NCBI RefSeq assembly: GCF_003660105.1
Contig: NZ_CP032823.1
Location: 248,001-312,000 of the forward strand
Origin: Aliarcobacter cryaerophilus ATCC 43158
GTDB taxonomy: Bacteria; Campylobacterota; Campylobacteria; Campylobacterales; Arcobacteraceae
Reading direction: 5' to 3'
Length of the DNA stretch: 64,000 nt
The stretch's first letter is position 1. Every line of letters starts with the position of its first letter. The notes under the pieces were generated by a model. That model did no database searches, was not told the origin of the DNA, and saw only the letters and a list, made by a program, of their open reading frames with translations. The position numbers and the translations under genes are program-made. Of this stretch, positions 38,832-51,450 are shown piece after piece.

Positions 38832-39833
38832 ATGTTAAGTGATTTATCAAATAATATTGAAATATTTAAAAAAGGTCATCCAGTAAGAGTATATTTAGAA
38901 GAGAATATATTAATAAAAAAGCTATTTTCCGAACTTTTTAATACAGATATAAAAAAAGATTATCAAAAATTTTATAATATTTTTAACCAAATTTGTGAAG
39001 TAGAAAAGCACTTTGCAAGAAAAGAGAACCAGCTTTTTCCTTATCTTGAAAAATATGGTTGGACTGGTCCTTCTCAAGGAATGTGGTCTTTTCATGATGA
39101 TATTAGAGCAATAATAAAAGATGCAAGAGCTAGTATTGAAGCAAAAGATTTTGACTCAATACTAGAAAAATGCACAAATGTATATAATAATTTGATTCAT
39201 TTAATAAATGTAGAAGAGAATAGGCTTCTTCCAAATGCTTTACAACTATTAAAAGAGGAAGATTGGGAAGAGTTTTATGAAGGAGATAGCGAAATTGGTT
39301 GGATGTTTACAACTCCTCCTCCTAGATATCCAGAGATTCTAAATAAAGAGACAAGCAATGCAGAACAAGAGTATATTCATCCAAGTATGGATAAGAAAAG
39401 AAGAGAATTACCATTCACTCTTGAGGGAAGAACTCATTATGATGAAGGTTATTTAACACCTGAACAAGTAAATTTTATATTTAAGTTCTTACCTGTAGAT
39501 ATTACTTATGTAGATGAAAATGATAGAGTTGTTTTTTATAATCGTGGAGATGAGAGAATTTTCCCAAGAAGTGCTGGAATAATCGGAAGAGAGGTTAAAT
39601 TTTGTCACCCTCCAAAAAGTGTTGATCAGGTTCTAAAAATTCTTGAAGAGTTTAAAGCAGGGAGTCAAGATATTGCTGATTTCTGGATTACATTTAAAGG
39701 AAAGTTTGTGCATATAAGATATTTTGCTGTAAGAGATGAGCAAAAAAACTATAAAGGTGTAATTGAAATGTCGCAAGATGTTACAGATATAAGAGCATTA
39801 CAAGGAGAGAAAAGACTTTTAGCTTGGGAGTAG
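38832..39833 (+). CDS. Hemerythrin (HHE)-PAS sensor protein
   Basis: A 333-aa soluble protein with a hemerythrin-type domain (about 10-140) and a C-terminal PAS domain (about 215-325). Candidate di-iron ligands are His16, His60, Glu65, His88, His123 and Glu128, a full set. The PAS part has LPVDITYVDENDRVVFYNRGDE and GVIEMSQDVTDIR. The layout matches the DUF438/HHE/PAS group. It may sense oxygen or NO, but no output domain is present. It stands alone, with a palindrome in front and a hairpin over its stop codon. Confidence 0.86.
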   Translation: MLSDLSNNIEIFKKGHPVRVYLEENILIKKLFSELFNTDIKKDYQKFYNIFNQICEVEKHFARKENQLFPYLEKYGWTGPSQGMWSFHDDIRAIIKDARASIEAKDFDSILEKCTNVYNNLIHLINVEENRLLPNALQLLKEEDWEEFYEGDSEIGWMFTTPPPRYPEILNKETSNAEQEYIHPSMDKKRRELPFTLEGRTHYDEGYLTPEQVNFIFKFLPVDITYVDENDRVVFYNRGDERIFPRSAGIIGREVKFCHPPKSVDQVLKILEEFKAGSQDIADFWITFKGKFVHIRYFAVRDEQKNYKGVIEMSQDVTDIRALQGEKRLLAWE

Positions 39834-39853
39834 CAGATTTTAAAAATCTGCTA
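39831..39853 (+). terminator. Hairpin at the end of the hemerythrin-PAS gene
   Basis: TAGCAGATTT (39831-39840) pairs with AAATCTGCTA (39844-39853). T-rich sequence follows on the plus strand. The stem includes the stop codon. Confidence 0.65.
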
Positions 39854-39873
39854 TTTATTATTTTGAATAAAAT

Positions 39874-40710
39874 CTATTTTACAATTTGGTGTAGCTTTGA
39901 ACATTGTCCTAAATATATATCCATTCCACACATATCATTCATAATATCTTGAAAACTATGAGCATGGGCATTGTAAACATATACAAAAATCTCATCACCT
40001 TTTTTTAAGAAGTTTTTCTTTCCAAAATCTGTATATGCTGTTGCACCTGCCGCTATTAAAATACCTTTTGAATTGTGCGCATATTTTAAAAACTGTCCTA
40101 ACTCTTCAAGTGGTCCACAATCTTCTTGGCAATTTAAAATATCAATCATCCAATCTTTTAACTTTTCAAAAAAATAGCTATATGATTTTACAGCACTAGT
40201 TGTTCCATAATCGCAAACAATTCCATCTCTTTTTATAAATGAAGAGATATGATATTTTCCTAAAATTCCTTTTTCACTAAAATCATCTATAGGAATAATA
40301 TCTTGAGAAATACCTTTTGTTTTAGAACCCCAGTTTTTTTTAGTACTTAGTTTATTCCCATCTTGAATACGAATAGAGCAGTCATTAAATGCTGTAAAAT
40401 ATTTTGGAACAATATCTATTACTTTTTCATTTTCATAGACAAAATCACAAATTAAAGCAACTTCTGCTTCAACTTGAAGTTTGTCTTCTTCTCTTCCATG
40501 AGTTAATATAACTTCATCACAAATAGGATAAGTTCCTAAAAAACTGTCATGACCTTTTATGTAAAAAGGAAACATCCCTTTTGGTGCATCTTTTTCTTTT
40601 GTTTCAATTACAGAAAACTCATCAGCTTCTCCAGCTTCTCCTAAGTGATTTGCAAAGTTTCCAGCAACTGCAAAACCTAAATAATCTTTTAAATCTTCTA
40701 TTAAATTCAT
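39874..40710 (-). CDS. DUF5718-like protein of unknown function
   Basis: A 278-aa soluble protein that I recognise only as a conserved Campylobacterota family (DUF5718-like). It has no signal peptide or membrane helix. The segment QVEAEVALICDF followed by YFTAFNDCSIR resembles the ExE and NDVSxR pattern of fumarylacetoacetate hydrolase-fold enzymes, and GATAYTDFGKKNFLKKGDE fits the end of that fold, so a hydrolase or decarboxylase is possible. It lies alone between the hemerythrin-PAS gene and the fumarase gene. Confidence 0.7.
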   Translation of the reverse strand: MNLIEDLKDYLGFAVAGNFANHLGEAGEADEFSVIETKEKDAPKGMFPFYIKGHDSFLGTYPICDEVILTHGREEDKLQVEAEVALICDFVYENEKVIDIVPKYFTAFNDCSIRIQDGNKLSTKKNWGSKTKGISQDIIPIDDFSEKGILGKYHISSFIKRDGIVCDYGTTSAVKSYSYFFEKLKDWMIDILNCQEDCGPLEELGQFLKYAHNSKGILIAAGATAYTDFGKKNFLKKGDEIFVYVYNAHAHSFQDIMNDMCGMDIYLGQCSKLHQIVK

Positions 40711-40821
40711 AATTATAAAATCCTAAAATATTTTGAATTGCAATTGTATCCAAAAAAATTGTTTTAAAAGTCAAAAACGAAATATAATTTGTTAATTTAA
40801 GAGTAATTTAAGATAGATATT

Positions 40822-40855
40822 TACAAAGAGCCTAGAGTATTTGTGGCTCTTTGTA
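40822..40855 (-). terminator. Hairpin after the fumarase gene
   Basis: TACAAAGAGCC (40822-40832) pairs with GGCTCTTTGTA (40845-40855), an 11-bp perfect stem. The T-run on the minus strand is weak. Confidence 0.55.
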
Positions 40856-40864
40856 TAATAAGGA

Positions 40865-42364
40865 TTACTTATTAATAGTTCTCCATTTAGCAGGTCCTGT
40901 TGTATGAATAGAGTTTCCAAGAGTATCAACAGCAACAGTTACAGGCATATCTTTTACTTCAAATTCGTAAATAGCTTCCATCCCAAGCTCTTCAAATGCT
41001 AAAGTTTTTGCTCCTTTTATTGATTGAGCAATTAAATATGCTGCACCTCCTGTTGCAATTAGATAGATAGATTTGTACTCTTTTATTAAATCGATTGTTG
41101 GTTGTTTTCTCTCACCTTTTCCAATCATTCCCATAATTCCAATTTCCATCATATCTTTTGTAAATTTATCCATTCTTGTAGATGTTGTTGGTCCTGCAGG
41201 TCCTACAACTTCACCTTTTACAGGATCAACTGGTCCAACATAGTATATAAATTTATCTTTTAAATCAACACCATTTGGAAGAGGAATTCCTGCATTTTTG
41301 TACTCAACTATTTTTTTGTGAGCAGCATCACGTGCAGTTAAAATTTTTCCAGATAATAAAAGTGTATCACCAGATTTAAATTGAGATAAATTCTCTTTTG
41401 TTAAATCTTCAATATTTACTCTTTTAATAGTATCCATTGGAAGTTCAATATCTGGCCAAAGATCTAAATCAGGTTTTTTAAATTTAGCAGGTCCATTTCC
41501 ATCTAATTCAAAGTGAATATGTCTAGTTGCTGCACAGTTTGGAATCATAGCAACAGGAAGTGAAGCAGCATGACATGGGTAATCTAAGATTTTAACATCT
41601 AAAACAGTTGTTAGACCTCCTAAGCCTTGAGCCCCAATTCCTAACTTATTTATATCTTCATATAATTTTAATCTTAATTCTTCAAGTGGAGTTTGAGCCC
41701 CTCTAGCTTTTAGTTCATGAATATCAACATGTCCCATTAAAGACTCTTTTGCAAGCAACATTGATTTTTCAGGATTTCCACCAATTCCAATTCCTAAAAT
41801 CCCAGGAGGACACCATCCAGCACCCATCTCTTTTACATTTGACATAACCCAATCATATATACTATCGCTTGGATTTAAAACAGCAAATTTAGATTTATTT
41901 TCACTTCCTCCACCTTTTGCTGCAACTGTAATATCAAGTTTATCAGAGTTATCAACACTTACATGAATAACAGCAGGAGTATTATTTTTTGTATTTGTTC
42001 TTTTTCCAGCAGGATCAGCTACAACTGAATATCTTAGAGTATTATCAGGGTCTGTATAACCTTTTGCTACACCTTCATTTAATAAATCTTCTAAATTTTT
42101 TGTAATATCTAGGTTTGCTTTTAACCCAACTTTTACAAAAATATTAACACTTCCTGTATCTTGACAAAGAGGTCTATGCCCTAAAGCACACATTTTTGAG
42201 TTTATTAGGATTTGTCCAATTGCATTTTTTGCTGCATCACTTTTTTCATTTTCATAAGCTTCAACCATACCTTTTACAAAGTCTTCTGGATGATAAAAAG
42301 ATATAAATTGACACGCAGAGGCAACTGAATCAATAATATCTTGTTCTGTGATTTTTTTACTCAT
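40865..42364 (-). CDS. fumA: Class I fumarate hydratase (iron-sulfur)
   Basis: This 4Fe-4S enzyme interconverts fumarate and malate. At 499 aa both halves are fused, as in E. coli FumA. Cluster-type cysteines are seen in CALGHRPLCQDTGS, AGWCPPGILGIGIGG and IPNCAATRH. The C-terminal beta domain has GPAGPTTSTRMDKF, GMIGKG and TGGAAYLIA. Some class I fumarases also hydrate mesaconate. That is of interest because the next genes upstream concern CoA derivatives that could derive from it. A terminator lies between them. Confidence 0.94.
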   Translation of the reverse strand: MSKKITEQDIIDSVASACQFISFYHPEDFVKGMVEAYENEKSDAAKNAIGQILINSKMCALGHRPLCQDTGSVNIFVKVGLKANLDITKNLEDLLNEGVAKGYTDPDNTLRYSVVADPAGKRTNTKNNTPAVIHVSVDNSDKLDITVAAKGGGSENKSKFAVLNPSDSIYDWVMSNVKEMGAGWCPPGILGIGIGGNPEKSMLLAKESLMGHVDIHELKARGAQTPLEELRLKLYEDINKLGIGAQGLGGLTTVLDVKILDYPCHAASLPVAMIPNCAATRHIHFELDGNGPAKFKKPDLDLWPDIELPMDTIKRVNIEDLTKENLSQFKSGDTLLLSGKILTARDAAHKKIVEYKNAGIPLPNGVDLKDKFIYYVGPVDPVKGEVVGPAGPTTSTRMDKFTKDMMEIGIMGMIGKGERKQPTIDLIKEYKSIYLIATGGAAYLIAQSIKGAKTLAFEELGMEAIYEFEVKDMPVTVAVDTLGNSIHTTGPAKWRTINK

Positions 42365-42484
42365 TAATTTTTCCTTTTTTGGTTTTAGAAATCTTTTAAT
42401 TATATCAATGCACCATATAAAATTGGCTTTTACAAAACATATTTTATATGAAAATTTTTAAATATATTAAAAATTTATGAATTA

Positions 42485-42518
42485 AAAAAAAGCTACCCTT
42501 AAAAAAGGGTAGCTTTTT
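42485..42518 (-). terminator. Terminator of the acyl-CoA cluster
   Basis: AAAAAGCTACCCTT (42487-42500) pairs with AAGGGTAGCTTTTT (42505-42518), loop AAAA. On the minus strand it ends in seven or more T residues, a strong rho-independent terminator after the lyase gene at 42533. Confidence 0.88.
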
Positions 42519-42532
42519 AAATCATTTAAAAA

Positions 42533-43516
42533 TTAGGCAAAAAATCTTTTTTCTGCTTCATCTTGTAATTTAACACCAGAATATTTAGCTCTTTGAACTA
42601 ATTCCCAGAAGTATCTGTAAGTTGCTCTATCATGTAATTCACCATCATACTGAATTGGTCCCCACTCAGCATCTTGCGCTTTGATTAAAATATTTTGTGC
42701 AGCTTCAAGCTCTGTAAAATCAGGTTTCATAGCATCAACGATTGCTTGAACTTGTGTTGGGTAAATTGACCACATTCTCATAAATCCAAACTCATTTCTT
42801 GCTCTTTCCGCATCTTTAAATGTTTGATATGGATTTTTTAAATCTAAAGTTACATTATGGCAAGGAATTACACAATTTTGAATAGCAGCTTGTGCAACTC
42901 TTGCTTTTGCAGCACCAATAAGTCTATGTTCAAATTGACCTGGACTTCTCATATTTATTGCTGGAATTGCTCCTTGGTATCCAGAAACAAAGTCCATTAA
43001 ACCAAAATCAAGTACTTGTAACCAAGGTAAAGTTGCAAGTTTTTCAACATCTTGTAAAGCACCATGAGTTTCAATTAAAATGTGAATTGGAATCTCTTTT
43101 TTAATTCCAGCTTTTTTTGCAACAGCTTGAATATACTCAATTTGAGTTTTTGCATCTTCATAACAAGTTGATTTAGGAAGTGTTATATATGCTAAATTTT
43201 CTCCAGCACCAGTTACAAGAATATCAACATCTTGTCTCCAATCAGGGTGAGAATGGTCATGAATTCTTGTTCCTGCCATTTTATATGGGTTTTCAGCAGA
43301 GTTTACAACTCTAACAATCATTTGAGCATGCTCAACTTCTTTACCAGTTTCAGCACCATCTTCACAGTCACAAGTAATATCAAATACAGGACCTAGTTTT
43401 TTTTGCATTTCAAAACCTTTTAGGATTAGCTTTTCGCTTCCTGCAAAGTGTTCACAAGTTGGAATAATTGGTAAAGATTTACCAGATTCAAATAAAGCTT
43501 CTTTTGGGTGTGTCAT
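42533..43516 (-). CDS. HpcH/HpaI (CitE)-family CoA lyase
   Basis: A 327-aa TIM-barrel lyase of the citrate lyase beta/malyl-CoA lyase family. It keeps the motif CDCEDGAE (the usual DLEDxV), the metal-binding Glu in HILIETHGA and the Asp in LDFGLMDFVSG. Members cleave or join acyl-CoA esters of 3-hydroxy acids, such as malyl-CoA, methylmalyl-CoA or citramalyl-CoA. It is the last gene of a four-gene cluster (47167 to 42533), 29 bp after the MaoC-type hydratase gene. A methylmalyl-CoA or malyl-CoA lyase role is inferred from the neighbours. Confidence 0.82.
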   Translation of the reverse strand: MTHPKEALFESGKSLPIIPTCEHFAGSEKLILKGFEMQKKLGPVFDITCDCEDGAETGKEVEHAQMIVRVVNSAENPYKMAGTRIHDHSHPDWRQDVDILVTGAGENLAYITLPKSTCYEDAKTQIEYIQAVAKKAGIKKEIPIHILIETHGALQDVEKLATLPWLQVLDFGLMDFVSGYQGAIPAINMRSPGQFEHRLIGAAKARVAQAAIQNCVIPCHNVTLDLKNPYQTFKDAERARNEFGFMRMWSIYPTQVQAIVDAMKPDFTELEAAQNILIKAQDAEWGPIQYDGELHDRATYRYFWELVQRAKYSGVKLQDEAEKRFFA

Positions 43517-43545
43517 GTTTTTTCCTTTTTATTAAATTTAATTTT

Positions 43546-44616
43546 TTATTTTTTTGTTGATTTTTTTGGGATTATAATTGTGTAATCCAAATCAAGTACA
43601 ACATTTGGAAGATATTTTCCATCTTCTGCTTTTGCATTTTCAATATCTTTTGGATTTTGGTTTTTAAGTGCAACGGTTCTAACTCTTAAAAGTCCAATAT
43701 CCTCTCTTTTATGTTCAATTTTTTCCAAAATTTCACTATAAGCATAAATTGTATCTCCAGCATAAGTTGGATTACAGTGATTTCCACTATTTATTGCATA
43801 TACCCATTGAGCATTTTGTAGCCCATTAAATGATATTGCTCTTGCCATTGATATTATAATTCCACCATACATAAGTCTTTGACCCATTGGTGTAGTTTTC
43901 ATCATATGGTCGTTGAAATGTACTTTTGCATTATTTTGATATAACTTTGTTGCAAGTGTATGGTCACTATTATCAATAGTTATTCCTTCTGGATGGTTTA
44001 GTCTTTCACCAACTTCATAATCTTCGAAGAAGTAAACTCCTCCACTCGCATTTGTATCAACACATTTTATAGTTGGGATATTAATCTTATCTAAAATTGG
44101 AGTTGCTTTTTCAAAAGTTGGAACTTCATTTATACCACTTAAGTTTGAGTGGTCTTTTTTATGAACCATTACCCATCTTTTAAAATTTAAAACTTCATTC
44201 CCATTTTGATTTATCCCAATTGAGTGAACGTATACAACCCCACTTTTTCCATTTGAGTTCTCTTTTAATCCAATAACTTTTGAAGTCATTGATACAGTAT
44301 CACCTATAAAAACTGGATTTGGGAAAGATATTTCAGCATACCCTAAATTTGCAATAGCATTTAAAGATATATCTTGAACAGATTTTCCAAATGTTAAATG
44401 AAACATTAAAATATCATCAATTGGTCTTTTGTCATATCCAATTTCCTTTGCTACAACATCACTTGAGTGCAAAGAAAATCTAGAACCTGTAAAAGCAATA
44501 TATAAAGATACATCACCTTCACTTATAGTTCTAGGAAGTGGATGAACTATTTTTTGACCAATACTAAAATCTTCAAAATAGTTACCAAAGTTTATTTTGT
44601 TGCTAATTTTTGACAA
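43546..44616 (-). CDS. MaoC-family hydratase, mesaconyl-CoA hydratase-like
   Basis: A 356-aa double hotdog protein. The first half begins FGNYFEDFSIGQKIVHP and has PRTISEGDVSLYIAFTGSRF. The second half has the hydratase pattern IDNSDHTLATKLYQNNAKVHFNDH and YGGIIISMARAI. This matches mesaconyl-CoA (2-methylfumaryl-CoA) hydratases, which make beta-methylmalyl-CoA. Such an enzyme next to CitE-type lyases is the known arrangement in C5 dicarboxylyl-CoA pathways. It lies 9 bp after the synthetase-lyase fusion gene. An R-specific enoyl-CoA hydratase is an alternative. Confidence 0.8.
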   Translation of the reverse strand: MSKISNKINFGNYFEDFSIGQKIVHPLPRTISEGDVSLYIAFTGSRFSLHSSDVVAKEIGYDKRPIDDILMFHLTFGKSVQDISLNAIANLGYAEISFPNPVFIGDTVSMTSKVIGLKENSNGKSGVVYVHSIGINQNGNEVLNFKRWVMVHKKDHSNLSGINEVPTFEKATPILDKINIPTIKCVDTNASGGVYFFEDYEVGERLNHPEGITIDNSDHTLATKLYQNNAKVHFNDHMMKTTPMGQRLMYGGIIISMARAISFNGLQNAQWVYAINSGNHCNPTYAGDTIYAYSEILEKIEHKREDIGLLRVRTVALKNQNPKDIENAKAEDGKYLPNVVLDLDYTIIIPKKSTKK

Positions 44617-44625
44617 TTTTTCTCC

Positions 44626-47148
44626 TTATTTTCCAAATAGATTTTGACCTAAAGCTTTATAAGTTTCGTACAACTTAATCATTTTTCTAGCCCATGCAAT
44701 TCTTGAAGAATCAACTAGTCTATTGTTATGTAAAATAACCTCTTTACCTTGCTTGTTAGCCTCTTCATATTTGCTAATCATCTCTTCATAATCTTCAACT
44801 TCACTTTGTTTTGGAGTGAATATATCATTTATATACTCAATTTGTATTGGATGTACAAGAGATTTTCCATCAAATCCTAGATTAAATGCATCTTTTGTAG
44901 AATCTTCACAAGCAAACTCATCTTTTACATCAAAGTGTGGACCATCTATTACCGTTTTTCCATAAGCTTTTGCTGCAAGTGCAATGTGTGCTAAGTATGT
45001 AACAATAGCTTTCGAGCCTCTTTTTATATCAATTTGAAGTCTATTTGCAAGTTTATTTGAACCAACAACAACCACTTCAACTTTTGAACTAGCTGCACAA
45101 ATTTCTTGAATATTTAAAACAGATATAGGTGTTTCAATCATAATCATAAGTGTAAGATTTTGATTTATCCCTTCTATTAATTTAACAGCTTCTAAAACAT
45201 CCTCTTTAGTATCAATTTTAGAGAATAATAATGAATCAAGCTCAATCTCACGAACTAGTTCTAAATCTTTTTTTAGATCTTCACTTCCTAGATTATTTAC
45301 TCTTAAAACTCTTTCACTCTCACCAAATTTAGCTCCACCTTTTTTATAAACCTCTTTTAAAGTCTCTCTTGCTAGCTCTCTTTGGTCTTCTAATATAGCT
45401 TCTAAATCGAAAATAACAGTATCAGCTAAAACAGTTCTAGCTTTTTCAACATTATGTTCATTGTAAGCAGGAACTAATAACATTGATCTTCTAGCTTTAT
45501 ACTCAACTATCTCTTCACCTTTTGTTATTGCAAAATATTTTTCATGTAAATCTTTTACTAGTTGTTTTCTAAGAACTTTTCCATTTTTTGTTCTTGGATA
45601 ATCAGACATTATAAAAATCTCTTTAGGAGCTTTATATTTTGCAAGATTATTTTGAGCAAATTTTAAAATCTCAGCTTCTTTTTCTTTACTCAAAGTTGAA
45701 TGTCCAACAACAGCAATAGCAACAATAGTTTTCTCTTTTTCAATATCAAGACCAAAAGCAACACAATCAGCTACATCAGCGTGAGTTTTTACAACTCTTT
45801 CAATCTCATGTGGACTTACTCTAAATCCAAAAGTATTGATAATATCATCTTTTCTACCAATAAACCAGATATATCCATCTTTATCTTTTCTTGCATAATC
45901 TCCTGTAAAGAAGTAACCATCATGTCTTGATTTTAAAGTCTCTTCTTCTAGTTGCCAATACTCTAAAAATAATCCTGGATCATCCTCTCCAATACAAATC
46001 ATTCCCTCTTCTTCAACTCCAACTTCTTCTAAAGTTTCAGGATCTAAAAGTTTTACAATATGTCCTGGTTGTGGGAAACCTGCACTTCCTGGTCTTATAG
46101 GATTATTTTTTGAGTGTGAAATATAGTATGAGCACTCACTCATTCCAATAGCTTCATAGATATCTTGTTCAAATCTATCTCTCCAAAGTCCTAACATCTC
46201 ATCACTTAAATGCTCTCCCGCACTCATACAATATCTTAAACTTGGACAATCATCAAGTTTAAAATCTGTTTTTTGAATAATTTGTCTATAGATTGTTGGA
46301 ACCCCAATAAATATTGTACATTCGTGTTTTTTGATTAAATTAATCCAAGTTGACGCATCATTTGCACCTTCATAAGCAATAACTGTGTGACCATTAAATA
46401 GTGGATCCATAAGTGCTGAACCTAAAACATAAGTCCAGTTAAATTTCCCCGAGTGCATAATTCTATCATTTTCTTTAAAATCAAACCAAAAATCTGTTGC
46501 TGGTTTTCTTCCTATTAGCGAACGGTGAGAGTGTAAAACACCTTTTGGATAACCAGTTGTTCCAGATGTATATACTAAATATGCAGGTTCACCTGATTTT
46601 GAATTATAATGATTTGGTGTTTTGCTTGTACTATTAAATATTTGATTTAGAGCAAATATTTCAATACCTTCTGGTTTTTTAAGACCTTCAGTGCTATCAA
46701 CTCCAGCAATTATTATAGTTCTTAAGTTATCAAGATTTAATAAATATGGAACCAAATTTTCATACATAGAAGCTGATAATACTATAGCTTTTGCTTGAGA
46801 ATCTTCAGCTAAATATTTAACTTCACTACCACTTAATAAAGTTGAAGTAGGAACGGCAATCATTCCACCTTTCATTACTCCAAAAAAAGATATTGGATAT
46901 GCAAGTGAATTTTTAAGACAAACCAATACTCTATCTCGTGGTTTTAAACCTATTTCTTGAGTAAGAAAGTTTGAAACTTGATCTGATTTTATAGCTAACT
47001 CTTTGTATGTAACTTGATCAGTTCCTAGTTTATCATCTTCAATAATCATAGCAACATTGTTCTCTTTTGCTGTACCAACCCAAGCTGATGTACAAGCAAT
47101 ACCTATATTTAAAAACTCAGGTATATCTAATTTTACTGTTTGACTCAT
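44626..47148 (-). CDS. Acyl-CoA synthetase fused to a CitE-like lyase domain
   Basis: An 840-aa fusion. Residues 1-545 are an AMP-forming acyl-CoA synthetase: YTSGTTGYPKG (193-203), YEAIGMSE (331-338), FFTGDY (413-418), GRKDDIINTFGFRVSP (431-446) and the catalytic Lys524 in RTKNGK. Residues 552-840 are an HpcH/HpaI-type domain that starts RRSMLLVPAYNEHNVEKA and ends GFDGKSLVHPIQIEYIN. In that domain the usual DLED reads DLEA (581-584), and the metal Asp of the G-x-x-D-L motif is Lys699 (GSNKLANRL), though Glu672 is kept. Lyase activity is therefore doubtful. It lies 18 bp after the lyase at 47167. Confidence 0.88.
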   Translation of the reverse strand: MSQTVKLDIPEFLNIGIACTSAWVGTAKENNVAMIIEDDKLGTDQVTYKELAIKSDQVSNFLTQEIGLKPRDRVLVCLKNSLAYPISFFGVMKGGMIAVPTSTLLSGSEVKYLAEDSQAKAIVLSASMYENLVPYLLNLDNLRTIIIAGVDSTEGLKKPEGIEIFALNQIFNSTSKTPNHYNSKSGEPAYLVYTSGTTGYPKGVLHSHRSLIGRKPATDFWFDFKENDRIMHSGKFNWTYVLGSALMDPLFNGHTVIAYEGANDASTWINLIKKHECTIFIGVPTIYRQIIQKTDFKLDDCPSLRYCMSAGEHLSDEMLGLWRDRFEQDIYEAIGMSECSYYISHSKNNPIRPGSAGFPQPGHIVKLLDPETLEEVGVEEEGMICIGEDDPGLFLEYWQLEEETLKSRHDGYFFTGDYARKDKDGYIWFIGRKDDIINTFGFRVSPHEIERVVKTHADVADCVAFGLDIEKEKTIVAIAVVGHSTLSKEKEAEILKFAQNNLAKYKAPKEIFIMSDYPRTKNGKVLRKQLVKDLHEKYFAITKGEEIVEYKARRSMLLVPAYNEHNVEKARTVLADTVIFDLEAILEDQRELARETLKEVYKKGGAKFGESERVLRVNNLGSEDLKKDLELVREIELDSLLFSKIDTKEDVLEAVKLIEGINQNLTLMIMIETPISVLNIQEICAASSKVEVVVVGSNKLANRLQIDIKRGSKAIVTYLAHIALAAKAYGKTVIDGPHFDVKDEFACEDSTKDAFNLGFDGKSLVHPIQIEYINDIFTPKQSEVEDYEEMISKYEEANKQGKEVILHNNRLVDSSRIAWARKMIKLYETYKALGQNLFGK

Positions 47149-47166
47149 TTTAATCTCCTATAATTA

Positions 47167-48300
47167 TTACAATTGACCATATGGCCAGTTTTCTTTAAAT
47201 GTATGCAGAGGCATTTTATTTAATACTGAAAGTGCAAATAACTCATCTTCTTTTGTTAAGCTTTTTAGAGCATAAGCTCTTAAAATATTTTGTAAAGATT
47301 TACCAAACATTGGAGGATCAAGCATTTCACCTTCATATCTAATTGCACCACTTAAAAGAGCATCTGCTTCAAGAGCTGCTTTTAAGATAGAAACATCTTT
47401 TGCAATCTCATTTGGTGATGGTGTAAATGCAACTTTACAGATATTTATATGGTTTGGAGTAATTACTTGTTTTCCAGTAAGTCCCATAGAACTCTCTCTT
47501 AAAGCATGAGAGTAAACATATTTACTAGCTTCATCTCCATGTAAATCTAACCATCTTCTAATATCTTTTTTTTCAACACAATTACTTGGTAATGAGTGTG
47601 GTGTAAGCATAACTTCAACTCCACCAATTACACCTTTTCCTTTAATTCTAGCTTCTAAAGTTAGCATATCAAAGTAAGTTTCAAGCTCGTCAATCCAACC
47701 TTTTGGAGTGATTTTATATGCCATAGCTTTTGAAAAATCGTGAATTCCAAATACTATATGTTTTACAGTTGAATACTCCATTAATCTATCAGCTATTTGA
47801 AGTGATTTTGGATGCTCAACGATTGGTTGAATTGTAAGATTACTTCCAATAGAGATTAACCAAGAAGATAAATCTCTAATTTCAGCACTTCCATAAACTT
47901 CTCCAGCTTTTGCTAAAACTATTACATCAATATATTGATGAATTTGTTTAAGCATTTTTAAATCCTCTTCATACTCTTCAGTTCTAAATGGATTTATTCT
48001 AATAGCTATTTGAAAATCTTTTTCAGGAAATTTTGGTAACTCTTGAATTAAAAGCTCTCTACTCATAGCTTTTTGTCTACATCCATCTTCTAAGTCAAAT
48101 AAAACTGTATGTGCTCTTGTATTATAAGCGTGTTTTTGAAGTCTTAATTTCGCTTGTTCTATACTCTCATAAGAACCATCTAGCGGGTTAAACTTTATAG
48201 GGGGATAATAAATTTGAATCCCTGGCCAATAACCACCAAGAACTGGAGTTAAATCATCTTTTGCTGTAAGTTTTGATAAATCTATCGCAGAAGTCATCAT
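47167..48300 (-). CDS. HpcH/HpaI (CitE)-family lyase, longer form
   Basis: A 377-aa lyase of the CitE superfamily, distinct from the one at 42533. It begins with an extension of about 60 residues (LGGYWPGIQIYYPPIKF) and then has VLFDLEDGCRQKA (the DLED motif intact), the PIVEHP segment and HIVFGIHDFSKAM with the metal Asp. Longer members include malate synthase-like or malyl-CoA-type enzymes, so it may condense or cleave a 2-oxoacid and an acyl-CoA. It is the first gene of the cluster. The ATG shown follows AAAGGTTG. Confidence 0.82.
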   Translation of the reverse strand: MMTSAIDLSKLTAKDDLTPVLGGYWPGIQIYYPPIKFNPLDGSYESIEQAKLRLQKHAYNTRAHTVLFDLEDGCRQKAMSRELLIQELPKFPEKDFQIAIRINPFRTEEYEEDLKMLKQIHQYIDVIVLAKAGEVYGSAEIRDLSSWLISIGSNLTIQPIVEHPKSLQIADRLMEYSTVKHIVFGIHDFSKAMAYKITPKGWIDELETYFDMLTLEARIKGKGVIGGVEVMLTPHSLPSNCVEKKDIRRWLDLHGDEASKYVYSHALRESSMGLTGKQVITPNHINICKVAFTPSPNEIAKDVSILKAALEADALLSGAIRYEGEMLDPPMFGKSLQNILRAYALKSLTKEDELFALSVLNKMPLHTFKENWPYGQL

Positions 48301-48475
48301 ATTTTCAACCTTTCTTTAAATTTCTTTTTATTTTTTAAGAAATCGTATTATTCCATAAAAAACTAATAGTGAAGTTATACACAATTTAAAATGAAATCAA
48401 TTTATATCTTTTAATATAGAAAATATTTTTAAGCTTATTATAATAATTGAGGTTTTATTAAAATAATAAACTATT

Positions 48476-48484
48476 TGCTAGAAT
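48476..48484 (+). promoter_or_regulatory. Extended -10 before mcrB
   Basis: TGCTAGAAT (hexamer 48479-48484) is an extended -10 element 40 bp before the ATG at 48524, which also has an AGGGA ribosome site. Expression signals therefore remain although the reading frame is broken. The 223-bp gap 48301-48523 shows nothing else. Confidence 0.5.
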
Positions 48485-48523
48485 GTTTGGAAAAATTTTG
48501 GAAATATTAAAATAGGGATTAAA

Positions 48524-48853
48524 ATGGAAGAGTTATTTAAACAGTGGTTAAAAAATAATAAAAATTTAAAAGATAATACGATTACAAACTATACAAATAG
48601 ATTGAAAAATATAATACCATTAAAATTGGTTGAAGTAAATTTTAAAGAAGAAAATATAAGTTTATATGATTTAAGAATTTAAGAATTAAAAAATATTAAT
48701 GAACTATTTGAAAAAAATATTTATGAGTTGCAAGAATGGAATAGAACTCGAACCATTGGTGGTGAAGCTTGGAGTGCACTCAAATATTTAATAGAATTTT
48801 TACACATACAAAGTAATGATTTAATACAAACAGATTTTTTTATAGGAAAAAAT
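48524..48853 (+). pseudogene. mcrB: Interrupted 5' part of mcrB (in-frame stop at 48680)
   Basis: From ATG 48524 the frame encodes MEELFKQWLKNNKNLKDNTI and continues as a helical domain like the SAM-like N-terminal domains of integrases. It stops at TAA 48680-48682 after 52 codons. The same frame then runs open into the McrB AAA+ domain through ELKNINELFEKNIYELQEWN and GGEAWSALKYLIEFL, which look like a continuation of one domain. The stop lies in a tandem repeat TTAAGAAT-TTAAGAAT (48671-48686). A change in repeat number does not restore the frame, so a point nonsense mutation is more likely. It could also be a sequencing error. Confidence 0.6.
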
Positions 48854-50215
48854 ATGCGAAAATCTAAACAAAAACAAGCACTAAACCAAATATTATATGG
48901 AAGTCCAGGGACTGGAAAAACTTATAATACTATAAACAAAGCTATTGAAATTATTGAAAATAGATTTATAGAAGATAATGAAAAAAGAGAAGATTTAAAA
49001 ACAAAGTTTGAAGAGTATAAAAAATCTGGACAGATAGAGTTTATAACATTTCATCAAAGTTTTTCTTATGAAGAGTTTGTAGAGGGAATAAAAGCAATTC
49101 CAGCTGGAAAAGATGGAAATGAAAATGGCGAAGATATGATTTATGATGTTGTCGATGGAATTTTTAAAAAGTTATCAAATAAAGCGAAAATAGATTTCTT
49201 TGAAAACAATTCAATAAAAAAAAATATAACTAAAAGAAAATTTATTTTAAATGCAAAAGCTTTAAATATTCAAGCTGAAATGATTGAAGATGATGAAAAT
49301 AATTTTAGAGTTTTGAAAGGTTCAAAAGTAAGAAAAGGAGAAGCAGAATCATTTAAAAATTATAATTATAGTTCTTTAAAAAATAAAGTATTAGAAACTG
49401 CAAAATATATTGAACAAGATGAGTTTTATATTTTAGAAGAAGATTTTGCATTTCAAAGCATGAGTGCTGCCTCTTCTGTAATTTTAGGAAGACAATCTAA
49501 TGGTTATAATGATTGGAAAGAAGTCTTAGATGATAACTTACCAATAAAAGACAAAAAAAATATAAAAAACTACATTCTAATAATAGATGAAATAAACAGA
49601 GGAAATATCTCAAAAATATTTGGAGAGCTTATAACTTTAATTGAGCCATCAAAAAGAGTAGGAGCAGATGAAGAGATTAAATTAAAACTTCCATATAGTG
49701 CAGATGATTTTGGAGTACCTTTAAATTTATACATAATTGGCACTATGAACACAGCTGATAGAAGTATCGCTTTAATGGATACGGCACTTAGAAGAAGATT
49801 TCATTTTGAGGAGATGATGCCAAATTCTAGTTTGCTTGAAAATTTAGTAGTTGATGGAATAAAAATAGATAAACTTCTTGAAAAAATAAATGAAAGAGTA
49901 GAGTATTTATACGACAGAGACCACACTATAGGTCATGCTTATTTTATGAGTTTACAAAATTTAGAAACAGCAAAAGATAAAAAAGCTGAACTAGAAAATA
50001 TCTTTAGAAATAAAATAATTCCACTTTTACAAGAGTATTTTTATGATGATTGGGAAAAAGTAAGATTAGTTTTAGGAGATGGGTTTGTGGAGAAAATAGA
50101 AGTAAAATCAGATATTTTTGATGAAGAATTAAGAAATGATAGTGAATATTTAGAAGAAGAGAAATTTATTTATAACATAAAAAAAGAGTTTGATTTTACA
50201 AAATTTAAAGACTAA
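48854..50215 (+). CDS. mcrB: McrB-type GTPase of a type IV restriction system
   Basis: McrB is the GTP-driven motor that moves along DNA and joins with McrC to cut modified DNA. Walker A is LYGSPGTGKTYNT, Walker B is IIDEINRGNISK, and TMNTADRSIALMDTALRRRF is the NTAD-type GTP motif and arginine finger region. I chose ATG 48854, which follows AGGA by 6 nt; a TTG at 48728 is also open. Without the upstream part the DNA-recognition domain would be incomplete. The mcrC gene starts 3 bp after the stop. Confidence 0.85.
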   Translation: MRKSKQKQALNQILYGSPGTGKTYNTINKAIEIIENRFIEDNEKREDLKTKFEEYKKSGQIEFITFHQSFSYEEFVEGIKAIPAGKDGNENGEDMIYDVVDGIFKKLSNKAKIDFFENNSIKKNITKRKFILNAKALNIQAEMIEDDENNFRVLKGSKVRKGEAESFKNYNYSSLKNKVLETAKYIEQDEFYILEEDFAFQSMSAASSVILGRQSNGYNDWKEVLDDNLPIKDKKNIKNYILIIDEINRGNISKIFGELITLIEPSKRVGADEEIKLKLPYSADDFGVPLNLYIIGTMNTADRSIALMDTALRRRFHFEEMMPNSSLLENLVVDGIKIDKLLEKINERVEYLYDRDHTIGHAYFMSLQNLETAKDKKAELENIFRNKIIPLLQEYFYDDWEKVRLVLGDGFVEKIEVKSDIFDEELRNDSEYLEEEKFIYNIKKEFDFTKFKD

Positions 50216-50217
50216 AA

Positions 50218-51450
50218 ATGAAAAAAGAGTTGATTTTAAAAGAGTTTGAATATCTTCAATATAAAAATGATACAAAAGATAATTTTATAAAAAAAGATAC
50301 TTTTGACTCTTTAGAAAAATTTATATTAGAAAATGAACAAACAGCACAATATTTAAAAATAACTACAAAAAAAGGTTTTGGTAAAGTTTTACAAACTCAA
50401 AATTATGTAGGACTAATACAAACAAAAGATGGAACTATAATAGAGATTTTGCCAAAAATTAAAAATGTAACAAAAGAAAAATCAAAAGATATTTTAATAA
50501 AAATGTTAAAAACTCTAAAAAATTCTCCATTTAAAAATCTTAGTGTTGCAAATTTAAAATCTTCAAAAATGCCACTTCTTGAGATTTTTATCTCAATGTT
50601 TTTAGAAGAGTTGGCCGCATTAGTTAGAAATGGAATAAAAAGTGATTACATAAGCAAAGAAGAGAATCTAAAATTTTTAAAAGGTAAACTAAAAATTTCT
50701 GAACAAATAAAATATAACACAATTCACAAAGAGAGATTTTTTGTTCAATACGAAGAGTTTATGAGCAATAGAGTTGAAAATAGGCTTATTAAAACTACTC
50801 TTCAATATTTGTATAAAAAATCAAAATTAAATAAAAATCAACAAAGAATTAGAGAATTTTTATTTGTTTTTGATGATATAAAAGTTTCACAAAATATAAA
50901 ATCAGATTTTTCAAATTTAAAATTAAATAGACAAATGAAAGATTATGAGCAAGTTTTATTGTGGTGTAAAACTTTTTTATTTGAAAACTCATTTTCTCCA
51001 TATAAGGGGAATGATGTAGCTTTTGCACTTTTATTTGATATGAATTTACTTTTTGAAAGTTTTGTTTATAGTTATTTAAAGAAGAGTTCAAATTTTCAAT
51101 ATATTAAATCACAAGATAGAACTCATCACTTAGCTTATGAAAATGGAAGTGGAAGATTTAGACTAAAACCTGATATTGTAATAAATGGTGGAGAGATTAT
51201 AGCAGATACAAAATGGAAAATCTTAAATGAAGAAAAATCTTACAATGGAGTTTCACAAGATGATATGTATCAACTTTATGCTTATGGTACAAAATATGAA
51301 AATTGTCAAAAAATGTATCTAATTTATCCTTTTGATGAATTATTTATAAAAAATTCATACAACTATTTCAAAGATAAAGAGCTAAAACTAGATATTTTAT
51401 TTTTTGATGTAGATAAAAAAATGTTTGTAGGAAAAAATATAGAGGCTTAA
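50218..51450 (+). CDS. mcrC: McrC endonuclease subunit
   Basis: A 410-aa McrC, the nuclease partner of McrB. The N-terminal half has the QNYVGLIQTKDGTIIEILPKI segment typical of the family. The PD-(D/E)XK site is seen as FRLKPDIVI followed by EIIADTKWK (Asp, Asp-x-Lys). It appears full length and intact, in contrast to mcrB. It is 3 bp after mcrB on the same strand. A hairpin covers its stop codon. Confidence 0.9.
   Translation: MKKELILKEFEYLQYKNDTKDNFIKKDTFDSLEKFILENEQTAQYLKITTKKGFGKVLQTQNYVGLIQTKDGTIIEILPKIKNVTKEKSKDILIKMLKTLKNSPFKNLSVANLKSSKMPLLEIFISMFLEELAALVRNGIKSDYISKEENLKFLKGKLKISEQIKYNTIHKERFFVQYEEFMSNRVENRLIKTTLQYLYKKSKLNKNQQRIREFLFVFDDIKVSQNIKSDFSNLKLNRQMKDYEQVLLWCKTFLFENSFSPYKGNDVAFALLFDMNLLFESFVYSYLKKSSNFQYIKSQDRTHHLAYENGSGRFRLKPDIVINGGEIIADTKWKILNEEKSYNGVSQDDMYQLYAYGTKYENCQKMYLIYPFDELFIKNSYNYFKDKELKLDILFFDVDKKMFVGKNIEA

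What the first reader, a model, noticed from the sequence alone, without database searches (positions are those of the whole stretch)
42533..48300. Four-gene acyl-CoA cluster with three CitE-type domains and a synthetase fusion
Seen: two stand-alone HpcH/HpaI lyases (42533, 47167), a MaoC-type hydratase resembling mesaconyl-CoA hydratase (43546), and an AMP-forming acyl-CoA synthetase fused to a third CitE-like domain (44626). All are on one strand with gaps of 9-29 bp and a strong terminator at the end. Known: such parts make up C5 dicarboxylyl-CoA routes (mesaconyl-CoA to methylmalyl-CoA to glyoxylate plus propionyl-CoA) and CoA-linked malate synthesis. Inference: a compact acid-activation and cleavage pathway, using a dicarboxylate or short acid, that I cannot match to a described one. 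The fusion would channel the CoA ester to a lyase domain.
Basis: partly seen in the sequence, partly recalled or inferred. Interest (0 to 1): 0.78.

Follow-up and report, generated by a model that had tools for sequence, protein, structure and literature searches.

The report
Arcobacter C5-acid CoA pathway gene cluster
Four neighbouring genes in an Aliarcobacter bacterium, kept in the same order in distant bacteria, most likely link pyruvate and acetyl-CoA to glyoxylate and propionyl-CoA; such a pathway was sketched on paper in 2007, I found no test of it, and one of the three supposed lyases appears to have lost its metal site.

Summary
In detail: genes A (47167), B (44626), C (43546) and D (42533) of an Aliarcobacter run on one strand with gaps of 18, 9 and 29 bp and a terminator-like hairpin after D. 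The cluster is not undescribed: the A. butzleri genome paper (PMC2147049) reported it, fusion included, and proposed that it interconverts glyoxylate + propionyl-CoA with pyruvate + acetyl-CoA. My searches of the held library found no experimental test. Added here: (1) A-B-C-D order is kept in 37 of 39 fusion loci (Campylobacterota, Gammaproteobacteria, one Thermodesulfovibrionales MAG); the other two are cut by contig ends. (2) The fusion's CitE domain lacks a metal-ligand Asp and a second invariant Asp in 60 of 60 rows, while A and D keep all seven superfamily residues, so channelling into a third lyase is unlikely. (3) Carriers have the methylcitrate gene prpB (23 of 24) and no isocitrate lyase (0 of 24); one MAG has the cluster in one run with prpB-prpC and prpD. 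Preferred reading: a citramalate-type route releasing glyoxylate and propionyl-CoA, closed by the methylcitrate cycle. Direction and substrates are inferred; A. butzleri did not grow on acetate or propionate, which speaks against it.

The parts
47167..48300 (-). Gene A: stand-alone CitE-like enzyme, 377 aa; proposed acetyl-CoA + 2-oxoacid lyase/synthase (citramalyl-CoA and/or malyl-CoA)
   Evidence: PF03328 over cut-off; all seven superfamily residues in 59 of 59 rows; first gene in 37 of 37 loci that reach D; Foldseek best matches are malyl-CoA and citramalyl-CoA lyases, from a weak model
44626..47148 (-). Gene B: AMP-forming acyl-CoA synthetase (about residues 1-540) fused to a CitE-like domain (about 550-838) that has lost residues for metal binding
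   Evidence: Pfam; ligase motif stretches A4 and A5 identical in 60 of 60 rows; MCL-R Asp168 replaced by K/N/T/Q and Asp45 by A/G/Y/M/E in 60 of 60 rows
43546..44616 (-). Gene C: MaoC-type, proposed mesaconyl-C1-CoA hydratase / beta-methylmalyl-CoA dehydratase, 356 aa
   Evidence: PF19315 over cut-off; PDB 4e3e (383 bits) and 8hgn, deposited as beta-methylmalyl-CoA dehydratase (345 bits)
42533..43516 (-). Gene D: stand-alone CitE-like enzyme, 327 aa; proposed beta-methylmalyl-CoA lyase
   Evidence: PDB 3qqw (464 bits) and 3r4i (332 bits), no assigned function; all seven superfamily residues in 37 of 37 rows; relatives of D sit next to relatives of C in a Sphingobium plasmid and the C. metallidurans megaplasmid
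42487..42518 (-). Terminator-like hairpin after D (14 pairs, T-run)
   Evidence: 5 such sites found in 39700-48800, 2.4 expected
40865..42364 (-). Class I fumarase, 499 aa; candidate mesaconase (citramalate to mesaconate)
   Evidence: PF05681 and PF05683; a class I fumarase gene lies within 3 kb downstream of D in 15 of 31 loci with at least 3 kb there

Best explanation
The cluster encodes a C5-dicarboxylyl-CoA route that connects pyruvate + acetyl-CoA with glyoxylate + propionyl-CoA and hands propionyl-CoA to the methylcitrate cycle. Proposed steps: A condenses acetyl-CoA with pyruvate to (S)-citramalyl-CoA/citramalate, and perhaps also acetyl-CoA with glyoxylate to malyl-CoA/malate; a class I fumarase acts as mesaconase and makes mesaconate; the ligase part of B makes mesaconyl-CoA at the cost of ATP to AMP; C hydrates it to beta-methylmalyl-CoA; D cleaves that to glyoxylate and propionyl-CoA; PrpC/AcnD/PrpF/PrpB turn propionyl-CoA + oxaloacetate into pyruvate + succinate. 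In this direction the net is 2 acetyl-CoA + oxaloacetate to succinate + malate, the stoichiometry of a glyoxylate cycle without isocitrate lyase. B's CitE domain would not cleave; it would bind CoA esters, hold the oligomer together or regulate. Several single steps (B as mesaconyl-CoA synthetase, fumarase on citramalate/mesaconate, a CitE enzyme making citramalate) were already named in PMC2147049, which however favoured the opposite net direction. Shown here: gene families, order, residue loss in B, co-occurrence. Inferred: every substrate, and the direction.
For: C is of the family of a deposited beta-methylmalyl-CoA dehydratase. C and D relatives pair in a Sphingobium plasmid after a CoA-transferase-type gene (annotated alpha-methylacyl-CoA racemase) where B would be. 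The A-B-C-D order is kept across phyla. prpB is over its cut-off in 23 of 24 distinct carrier genomes against 1 of 4 non-carriers; the 24th (G337) has methylmalonyl-CoA mutase. No carrier shows a full isocitrate lyase: every PF00463 match lies inside the prpB place. Malate synthase is in 3 of 24, so in most carriers glyoxylate needs another enzyme. In L064 one run holds A-B-C-D, a propionate/acetate-CoA ligase, a fumarase alpha subunit, a prpB-prpC fusion and prpD. The window genome has prpB-prpC-acnD-prpF (the names acnD and prpF are from reading the sequences and from PMC2147049). An IclR-type regulator, closest to BhcR in the one scanned, lies upstream in 4 of the 13 loci listed. A class I fumarase is in 23 of 24 carriers. 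A related CitE-like enzyme, Rv2498c, is an (S)-citramalyl-CoA lyase with weak malate and methylmalate synthase activity (PMC6689899 passages), so a double role for A is conceivable. A marine Arcobacter phylotype increased strongly with added acetate (PMC6175234 passages); whether it carries the cluster is unknown.
Against: A. butzleri RM4018 did not grow on acetate, propionate or both (PMC2147049). No thioesterase is in the cluster, so release of free citramalate by A is assumed. No fumarase gene lies within 3 kb of D in 16 of 31 loci and none was found in carrier G327. Specificity of B for mesaconate rather than citramalate or malate is untested. Three carriers also have a malate synthase. 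The propionate/acetate-CoA ligase beside the cluster in L064 fits the opposite, propionate-consuming direction as well. PrpD (PF03972) is in 3 of 60 relatives, all three without the cluster, so the methylcitrate link in Arcobacteraceae rests on prpB and, in the window genome, on the acnD/prpF type. Co-occurrence counts are not corrected for shared ancestry, there are only 4 non-carriers in that set, and completeness of the genomes behind loci is not told.
Confidence: 0.42

Rival explanations
1. Same intermediates, opposite net direction (the one favoured in the 2007 paper): D joins glyoxylate and propionyl-CoA, C dehydrates to mesaconyl-CoA, a thioesterase frees mesaconate, fumarase makes citramalate, B activates citramalate (my assignment; the paper gives B mesaconyl-CoA synthesis), and A cleaves citramalyl-CoA to pyruvate + acetyl-CoA. 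It would dispose of glyoxylate and propionate.
For: Net direction proposed for ab1917-ab1921. The 3-hydroxypropionate bi-cycle runs this way (recalled; the passages of PMC6593406 say only that these reactions connect the pools). In L064 a propionate/acetate-CoA ligase is in the same run. A's fold matches include (S)-citramalyl-CoA lyases.
Against: It makes the methylcitrate cycle a second, parallel sink for propionyl-CoA although prpB is in 23 of 24 carriers. It needs a mesaconyl-CoA thioesterase that is not in the cluster, then pays ATP to make a new CoA ester. No isocitrate lyase to supply glyoxylate.
Confidence: 0.3
2. Breakdown of a C5 acid from outside or from glutamate: mesaconate (or citramalate or a related acid) is activated by B, hydrated by C and split by D to glyoxylate and propionyl-CoA; A uses glyoxylate to make malyl-CoA/malate.
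For: Uses all four genes and needs no thioesterase before D. A glutamate mutase E subunit is in 9 of 24 carriers; in the six loci read it lies between a MutS-like and a GlmL-like gene (by length and sequence start; families checked in L157 only).
Against: No glutamate mutase in the window genome. No methylaspartase recognised beside the mutase in the six loci; the next gene is a ligase (methylaspartase was not searched genome-wide). No evident transporter among the ORFs around the cluster (read by eye). The cluster is in 31 of 31 genomes sampled from the genus, which fits central metabolism better than a nutrient niche.
Confidence: 0.15
3. B's fused domain is an active lyase with an unusual metal site, and B is a one-protein ATP-dependent citramalate or malate lyase.
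For: Adenylation motifs are intact and the lid Asp is kept in 60 of 60 rows. The domain scores best of the three against PF03328.
Against: Asp168 and Asp45 equivalents are gone in 60 of 60 rows, and Glu141, Arg76 and Glu44 in some; the paper calls the metal ligands Glu141 and Asp168 and also Glu44 and Asp45 absolutely conserved in the superfamily (PMC3832036 passages). The domain is also less conserved (mean 56% identity to 11 distant loci) than the ligase part (72%), A (79%) or D (77%, 10 loci).
Confidence: 0.07

Closest known systems
ab1917-ab1921 of Arcobacter butzleri RM4018 (Miller et al. 2007, PMC2147049)
   Same: By its description the same cluster: two CitE-like proteins, ligase-CitE fusion, hydratase and class I fumarase, with methylcitrate genes elsewhere; the same intermediates proposed, and the TCA, methylcitrate and citramalate cycles drawn in one figure
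   Different: That paper lets any of the three CitE proteins be a lyase and favours conversion of glyoxylate + propionyl-CoA to acetyl-CoA + pyruvate; the section read does not report the cluster in other phyla. The lost metal site, the cross-phylum order and the linkage in L064 are added here
Citramalate cycle proposed for Rhodospirillum rubrum (PMC8307300 passages)
   Same: Pyruvate + acetyl-CoA to citramalate, mesaconate, mesaconyl-CoA, methylmalyl-CoA, then glyoxylate + propionyl-CoA. The review also lists the methylcitrate cycle among routes from propionyl-CoA that yield pyruvate
   Different: In the cycle as drawn there propionyl-CoA is carboxylated to succinyl-CoA and mesaconate is activated by a CoA transferase; here a methylmalonyl-CoA-mutase-type gene is absent in 22 of 24 carriers, prpB is present, and a ligase fusion would activate
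Glyoxylate half of the 3-hydroxypropionate bi-cycle (Chloroflexus)
   Same: Hydratase family of C and CitE-like lyases
   Different: No class III CoA transferase in the window genome; D matches Chloroflexus malyl-CoA lyase 4l7z only weakly (33.8 bits) and A does not list it at E <= 0.001
Methylaspartate cycle of haloarchaea
   Same: Mesaconate, mesaconyl-CoA, beta-methylmalyl-CoA, glyoxylate + propionyl-CoA (PMC8307300 passages)
   Different: No glutamate mutase in the window genome; propionyl-CoA would go to the methylcitrate cycle

Membership tests
CitE-like superfamily, catalytically competent (MCL-R residues D42, E44, D45, R76, E141, D168, D299) | A keeps all seven | tested here: met
   59 of 59 rows; residue list from PMC3832036 passages, which notes Asn for D42 in the Chloroflexus group and Glu for D299 in the thioesterase group
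CitE-like superfamily, catalytically competent (MCL-R residues D42, E44, D45, R76, E141, D168, D299) | D keeps all seven | tested here: met
   37 of 37 rows
CitE-like superfamily, catalytically competent (MCL-R residues D42, E44, D45, R76, E141, D168, D299) | C-terminal domain of B keeps all seven | tested here: not met
   D45 and D168 absent in 60 of 60 rows; E141 kept in 55, R76 in 57, E44 in 59, D42 and D299 in 60; position checked against 4l9y and CLYBL and against A and D
Malyl-CoA thioesterase group (R. sphaeroides type) | Glu in place of the lid Asp | tested here: not met
   Asp in 59 of 59 rows of A and 37 of 37 of D
Itaconate degradation (RipB/RipC) | RipB and RipC models over their cut-offs | tested here: not met
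   RipB for C 123.6 of 340 bits; RipC for A 50.3 and for D 37.1 of 375 bits
3-hydroxypropionate bi-cycle, glyoxylate half | Hydratase of the beta-methylmalyl-CoA dehydratase family known from Chloroflexus | tested here: met
   C matches 4e3e and 8hgn over nearly its full length; the organisms behind these entries are recalled, not shown by the call
3-hydroxypropionate bi-cycle, glyoxylate half | Intramolecular mesaconyl-CoA transferase (class III CoA transferase family) | tested here: not met
   PF02515 absent from the window genome; in 2 of 24 distinct carriers
3-hydroxypropionate bi-cycle, glyoxylate half | Mesaconyl-C4-CoA hydratase (Meh) | not tested
   no search made
Methylaspartate cycle | Glutamate mutase | tested here: not met
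   PF06368 absent from the window genome; present in 9 of 24 distinct carriers
Methylaspartate cycle | Methylaspartate ammonia-lyase | not tested
   no genome search made
Glyoxylate cycle | Isocitrate lyase and malate synthase | tested here: not met
   Only the prpB match for PF00463; PF01274 absent from the window genome
Citramalate cycle (as proposed for R. rubrum) | Propionyl-CoA to succinyl-CoA by methylmalonyl-CoA mutase | tested here: not met
   PF01642 absent from the window genome; methylcitrate genes instead
Citramalate cycle (as proposed for R. rubrum) | Enzyme activities: citramalate formation, mesaconase, mesaconate activation | not testable with these tools
   needs recombinant enzymes
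AMP-forming acyl-CoA synthetase | Adenylation-domain motifs intact in B | tested here: met
   stretches A4 and A5 identical in 60 of 60 rows; A3, A7, A8 and A10 with minor changes; motif names recalled

The most novel reading that the evidence does not exclude
A complete anaplerotic cycle that I have not seen assigned to genes: citramalate route plus methylcitrate cycle. Pyruvate is the carrier, regenerated by methylisocitrate lyase; two acetyl-CoA give one net C4 acid without isocitrate lyase, without carboxylation and without B12. It is spread as a four-gene cassette across three phyla, with a CoA ligase that carries a dead lyase as a product-binding or regulatory domain. The pieces are in print (PMC2147049 draws both cycles with the opposite net direction; PMC8307300 lists the methylcitrate cycle as a way from propionyl-CoA to pyruvate), so the novelty would lie in the closed cycle, its genes and the ligase.
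Probability: 0.28. Interest if true: 0.7.

Novelty: new variant of a known kind. Interest (0 to 1): 0.5.

Why it matters
If the pathway runs as proposed it gives Arcobacteraceae and some Gammaproteobacteria a way to turn acetate or propionate into C4 acids without isocitrate lyase, and it would give genes to the disputed citramalate cycle. It also corrects the annotation of the fusion: one of the three domains annotated as lyases is probably not a lyase. The proteins are small enough to test in vitro.

Tried and rejected
Rejected: a third active lyase in B (metal site lost). Rejected: A or D as a thioesterase of the R. sphaeroides type (lid residue is Asp). Rejected: itaconate degradation, as far as NCBIfam models go. 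Rejected for the window genome: methylaspartate cycle (no glutamate mutase), glyoxylate cycle, methylmalonyl-CoA route. Not decided: the direction.

Led nowhere: the model of A is poor (mean pLDDT 58.6), so its fold matches say little beyond CitE-like. The model of B (70.8) matched only ligases among the 50 rows shown, so it gives no independent structural view of the CitE domain; the loss of the metal site rests on sequence alignments. Relatives of D on Azoarcus, Burkholderia, Variovorax and Cupriavidus plasmids did not settle its substrate; two of those stretches carry no annotation, and my ORF lists for them are unreliable (overlapping frames). Gene A has one weak plasmid match (27% identity, Halorientalis), not followed. 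Paper searches on acetate use gave one useful paper. Searches for print on this cluster or route; among the listings only PMC2147049 was seen to describe it; most listed papers were not opened, and the library lacks most subscription journals. Papers opened: PMC2147049 (passages and the whole of section 9), PMC6593406, PMC8307300, PMC3832036, PMC6689899, PMC6175234 (passages only).
Full report
Observation. On the - strand, in order of transcription: A 47167-48300, B 44626-47148, C 43546-44616, D 42533-43516, with gaps of 18, 9 and 29 bp. A terminator-like hairpin follows D at 42518-42487. Then come a class I fumarase (40865-42364) and a DUF5718 protein (39874-40710) on the same strand. The genome is an Aliarcobacter: the nearest named locus, L034, is Arcobacter (Aliarcobacter) cryaerophilus, 98% identical over B. 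PF03328 has no other match at E <= 0.001 in it.

Already described. The A. butzleri RM4018 genome paper (PMC2147049; [quoted passage not shown] It proposes that they interconvert glyoxylate + propionyl-CoA with pyruvate + acetyl-CoA through citramalate, mesaconate, mesaconyl-CoA and beta-methylmalyl-CoA, names single steps in either direction, and favours the net formation of acetyl-CoA + pyruvate. That section reports growth tests but no assay of these enzymes. Among the listings of my searches I saw no later test; the library lacks most subscription journals.

Conservation. In a sample of 60 relatives the full fusion is in 34: 31 of 31 of the same genus (own genome included; in G016 it is split over two contigs), 3 of 6 others of the family, 0 of 23 more distant. 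Gene A is in 18 of 298 genomes drawn from the phylum at E <= 1e-30. In genome contigs 79 loci were returned (the best 80 of 116 relatives were kept); in 39 of them the fusion is over 55% identical. Of these 39, 37 have A-B-C-D on one strand and two are cut by contig ends. They include Sulfurospirillum arcachonense, six MAGs titled Gammaproteobacteria or Chromatiales and one titled Thermodesulfovibrionales. Pairwise identities of the four proteins among 18 representatives rise and fall together (Spearman 0.67-0.87; pairs are not independent), as expected of a unit inherited or transferred together. A is the most conserved (0.73-0.82 between Campylobacterota and Gammaproteobacteria).

What the proteins are. 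C matches 4e3e (383 bits, 'MaoC domain protein dehydratase') and 8hgn (345 bits, deposited as beta-methylmalyl-CoA dehydratase) over nearly its whole length. D matches 3qqw (464 bits) and 3r4i (332 bits), structures without assigned function (listed as CitE-like in PMC3832036). Relatives of D lie next to a relative of C in a Sphingobium plasmid (59% and 45% identity), there after a gene annotated alpha-methylacyl-CoA racemase that matches class III CoA-transferase models below their cut-offs, and in the C. metallidurans megaplasmid (59% and 49%). Of six plasmid stretches read around D relatives, only these two show the C relative beside it. This makes D the natural candidate for the beta-methylmalyl-CoA lyase step, by association only. 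A has weak sequence matches, best to the human citrate lyase beta-like protein CLYBL and malyl-CoA lyases; its model is poor but falls on CitE-like structures.

The fused domain. PMC3832036 (passages) names conserved residues of CitE-like enzymes. In MCL-R numbering E44, D45, E141 and D168 are called absolutely conserved; R76 and D299 are conserved except for Glu at D299 in the thioesterase group; D42 is conserved except in the Chloroflexus group. I mapped these onto three alignments. A has all seven in 59 of 59 rows and D in 37 of 37. In B, D168 is K (47), N (9), T (3) or Q (1) and D45 is A (52), G (3), Y (3), M (1) or E (1), so both are lost in 60 of 60 rows; E141 is kept in 55, R76 in 57, E44 in 59, D42 and the lid Asp in 60. 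Rows include the window genome more than once (two extra in B, one each in A and D). The placing was checked on alignments with 4l9y and CLYBL and with A and D. The domain is also less conserved than its neighbours (mean 56% against 72% for the ligase part, 79% for A, 77% for D, 68% for C; 11 distant loci, 10 for D). Ligase motifs are intact. The likely picture is an active CoA ligase with a degenerate lyase attached.

Partners. The window genome has prpB, prpC, acnD and prpF together (L116; prpB by TIGR02317, the other names by reading the sequences). Seven families were sought in 30 handles, which are 28 distinct genomes (G333 equals G206 and G343 equals G033 by coordinates): 24 carry the cluster or at least gene A, and 4 do not (G031, G034, G036, G257). 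Carriers against non-carriers: prpB over cut-off 23 of 24 against 1 of 4; isocitrate lyase 0 of 24 against 0 of 4, since every PF00463 match lies within the prpB place; malate synthase 3 against 0; methylmalonyl-CoA mutase family 2 against 0 (G337, and G339 where the match is in a 1149-codon frame and may be another mutase); class I fumarase 23 against 4; glutamate mutase E 9 against 0; class III CoA transferase 2 against 0. The one carrier below the prpB cut-off is G337. In the 60 relatives, short PF00463 matches of the prpB kind are in 33 of 34 carriers (the miss, G025, is 54% complete) and in 4 of 26 non-carriers, one of which (G043) also has a true isocitrate lyase; PrpD is in 3 of 60, all non-carriers. 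Kinship is not corrected for.

The most telling locus is L064 (Thermodesulfovibrionales MAG): two PYC/OADA-type carboxylase subunits, then A-B-C-D, a propionate/acetate-CoA ligase, a fumarase alpha subunit, a prpB-prpC fusion and prpD, all on one strand. It is one locus of 39. Upstream of the cluster in 4 of the 13 loci whose neighbours were listed (L051, L059, L060, L069) is a divergent IclR-type regulator; the one scanned (L069) is closest to the BhcR model (107 bits, cut-off 350) and also matches the glyoxylate-bypass IclR model.

Mechanism. I commit to the C5 route described under Best explanation (about 0.42 in the stated direction, 0.30 reversed). For the stated direction: AMP-forming ligases run towards the CoA ester in the cell (recalled), the methylcitrate cycle then follows in sequence and regenerates the pyruvate spent, and no carrier has isocitrate lyase. 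Against it: A. butzleri did not grow on acetate or propionate, and release of free citramalate must be assumed. A marine Arcobacter phylotype did respond to acetate (PMC6175234 passages), but whether it carries the cluster is not known. The combination is not wholly new in print: PMC2147049 draws a citramalate and a methylcitrate cycle together, and PMC8307300 (passages) lists the methylcitrate cycle among the routes by which propionyl-CoA can yield pyruvate.

Verdict. A real, strictly ordered cassette whose paper pathway is known since 2007; new here are the degenerate third domain, the spread over three phyla (phylum names recalled) and the tie to methylcitrate genes.

Noticed in passing
L152-L157 (for example L157 7507-12034): Nine of 24 distinct carrier genomes, not the window's, have a glutamate mutase E subunit. 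In the six loci read it lies between a MutS-like and a GlmL-like gene and is followed by an AMP-forming ligase; in L157 that ligase is nearest the exosortase-associated acyl-CoA ligase model (below cut-off). No methylaspartase was recognised beside it.
   Followed up: partly
window 48728-51450: Just upstream of the cluster, on the other strand, an AAA protein and an McrC-like protein (PF10117, 340 bits) look like a McrBC-type restriction system.
   Followed up: no
window 39874-40710: A DUF5718 protein (a sub-threshold match to fumarylacetoacetate hydrolase) follows the fumarase, and comes next after gene D among the genes searched in several loci without the fumarase.
   Followed up: no
L118 and L122: Relatives of D on Cupriavidus pinatubonensis and Variovorax plasmids lie near CoA transferases, a second CitE-like lyase and tripartite tricarboxylate transporter proteins, and in Cupriavidus next to a pyruvate carboxylase.
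   Followed up: partly
L064 97-3198: Two tandem PYC/OADA-type carboxylase subunits with near-identical starts precede the cluster in the Thermodesulfovibrionales MAG; only the first has a biotin domain.
   Followed up: no
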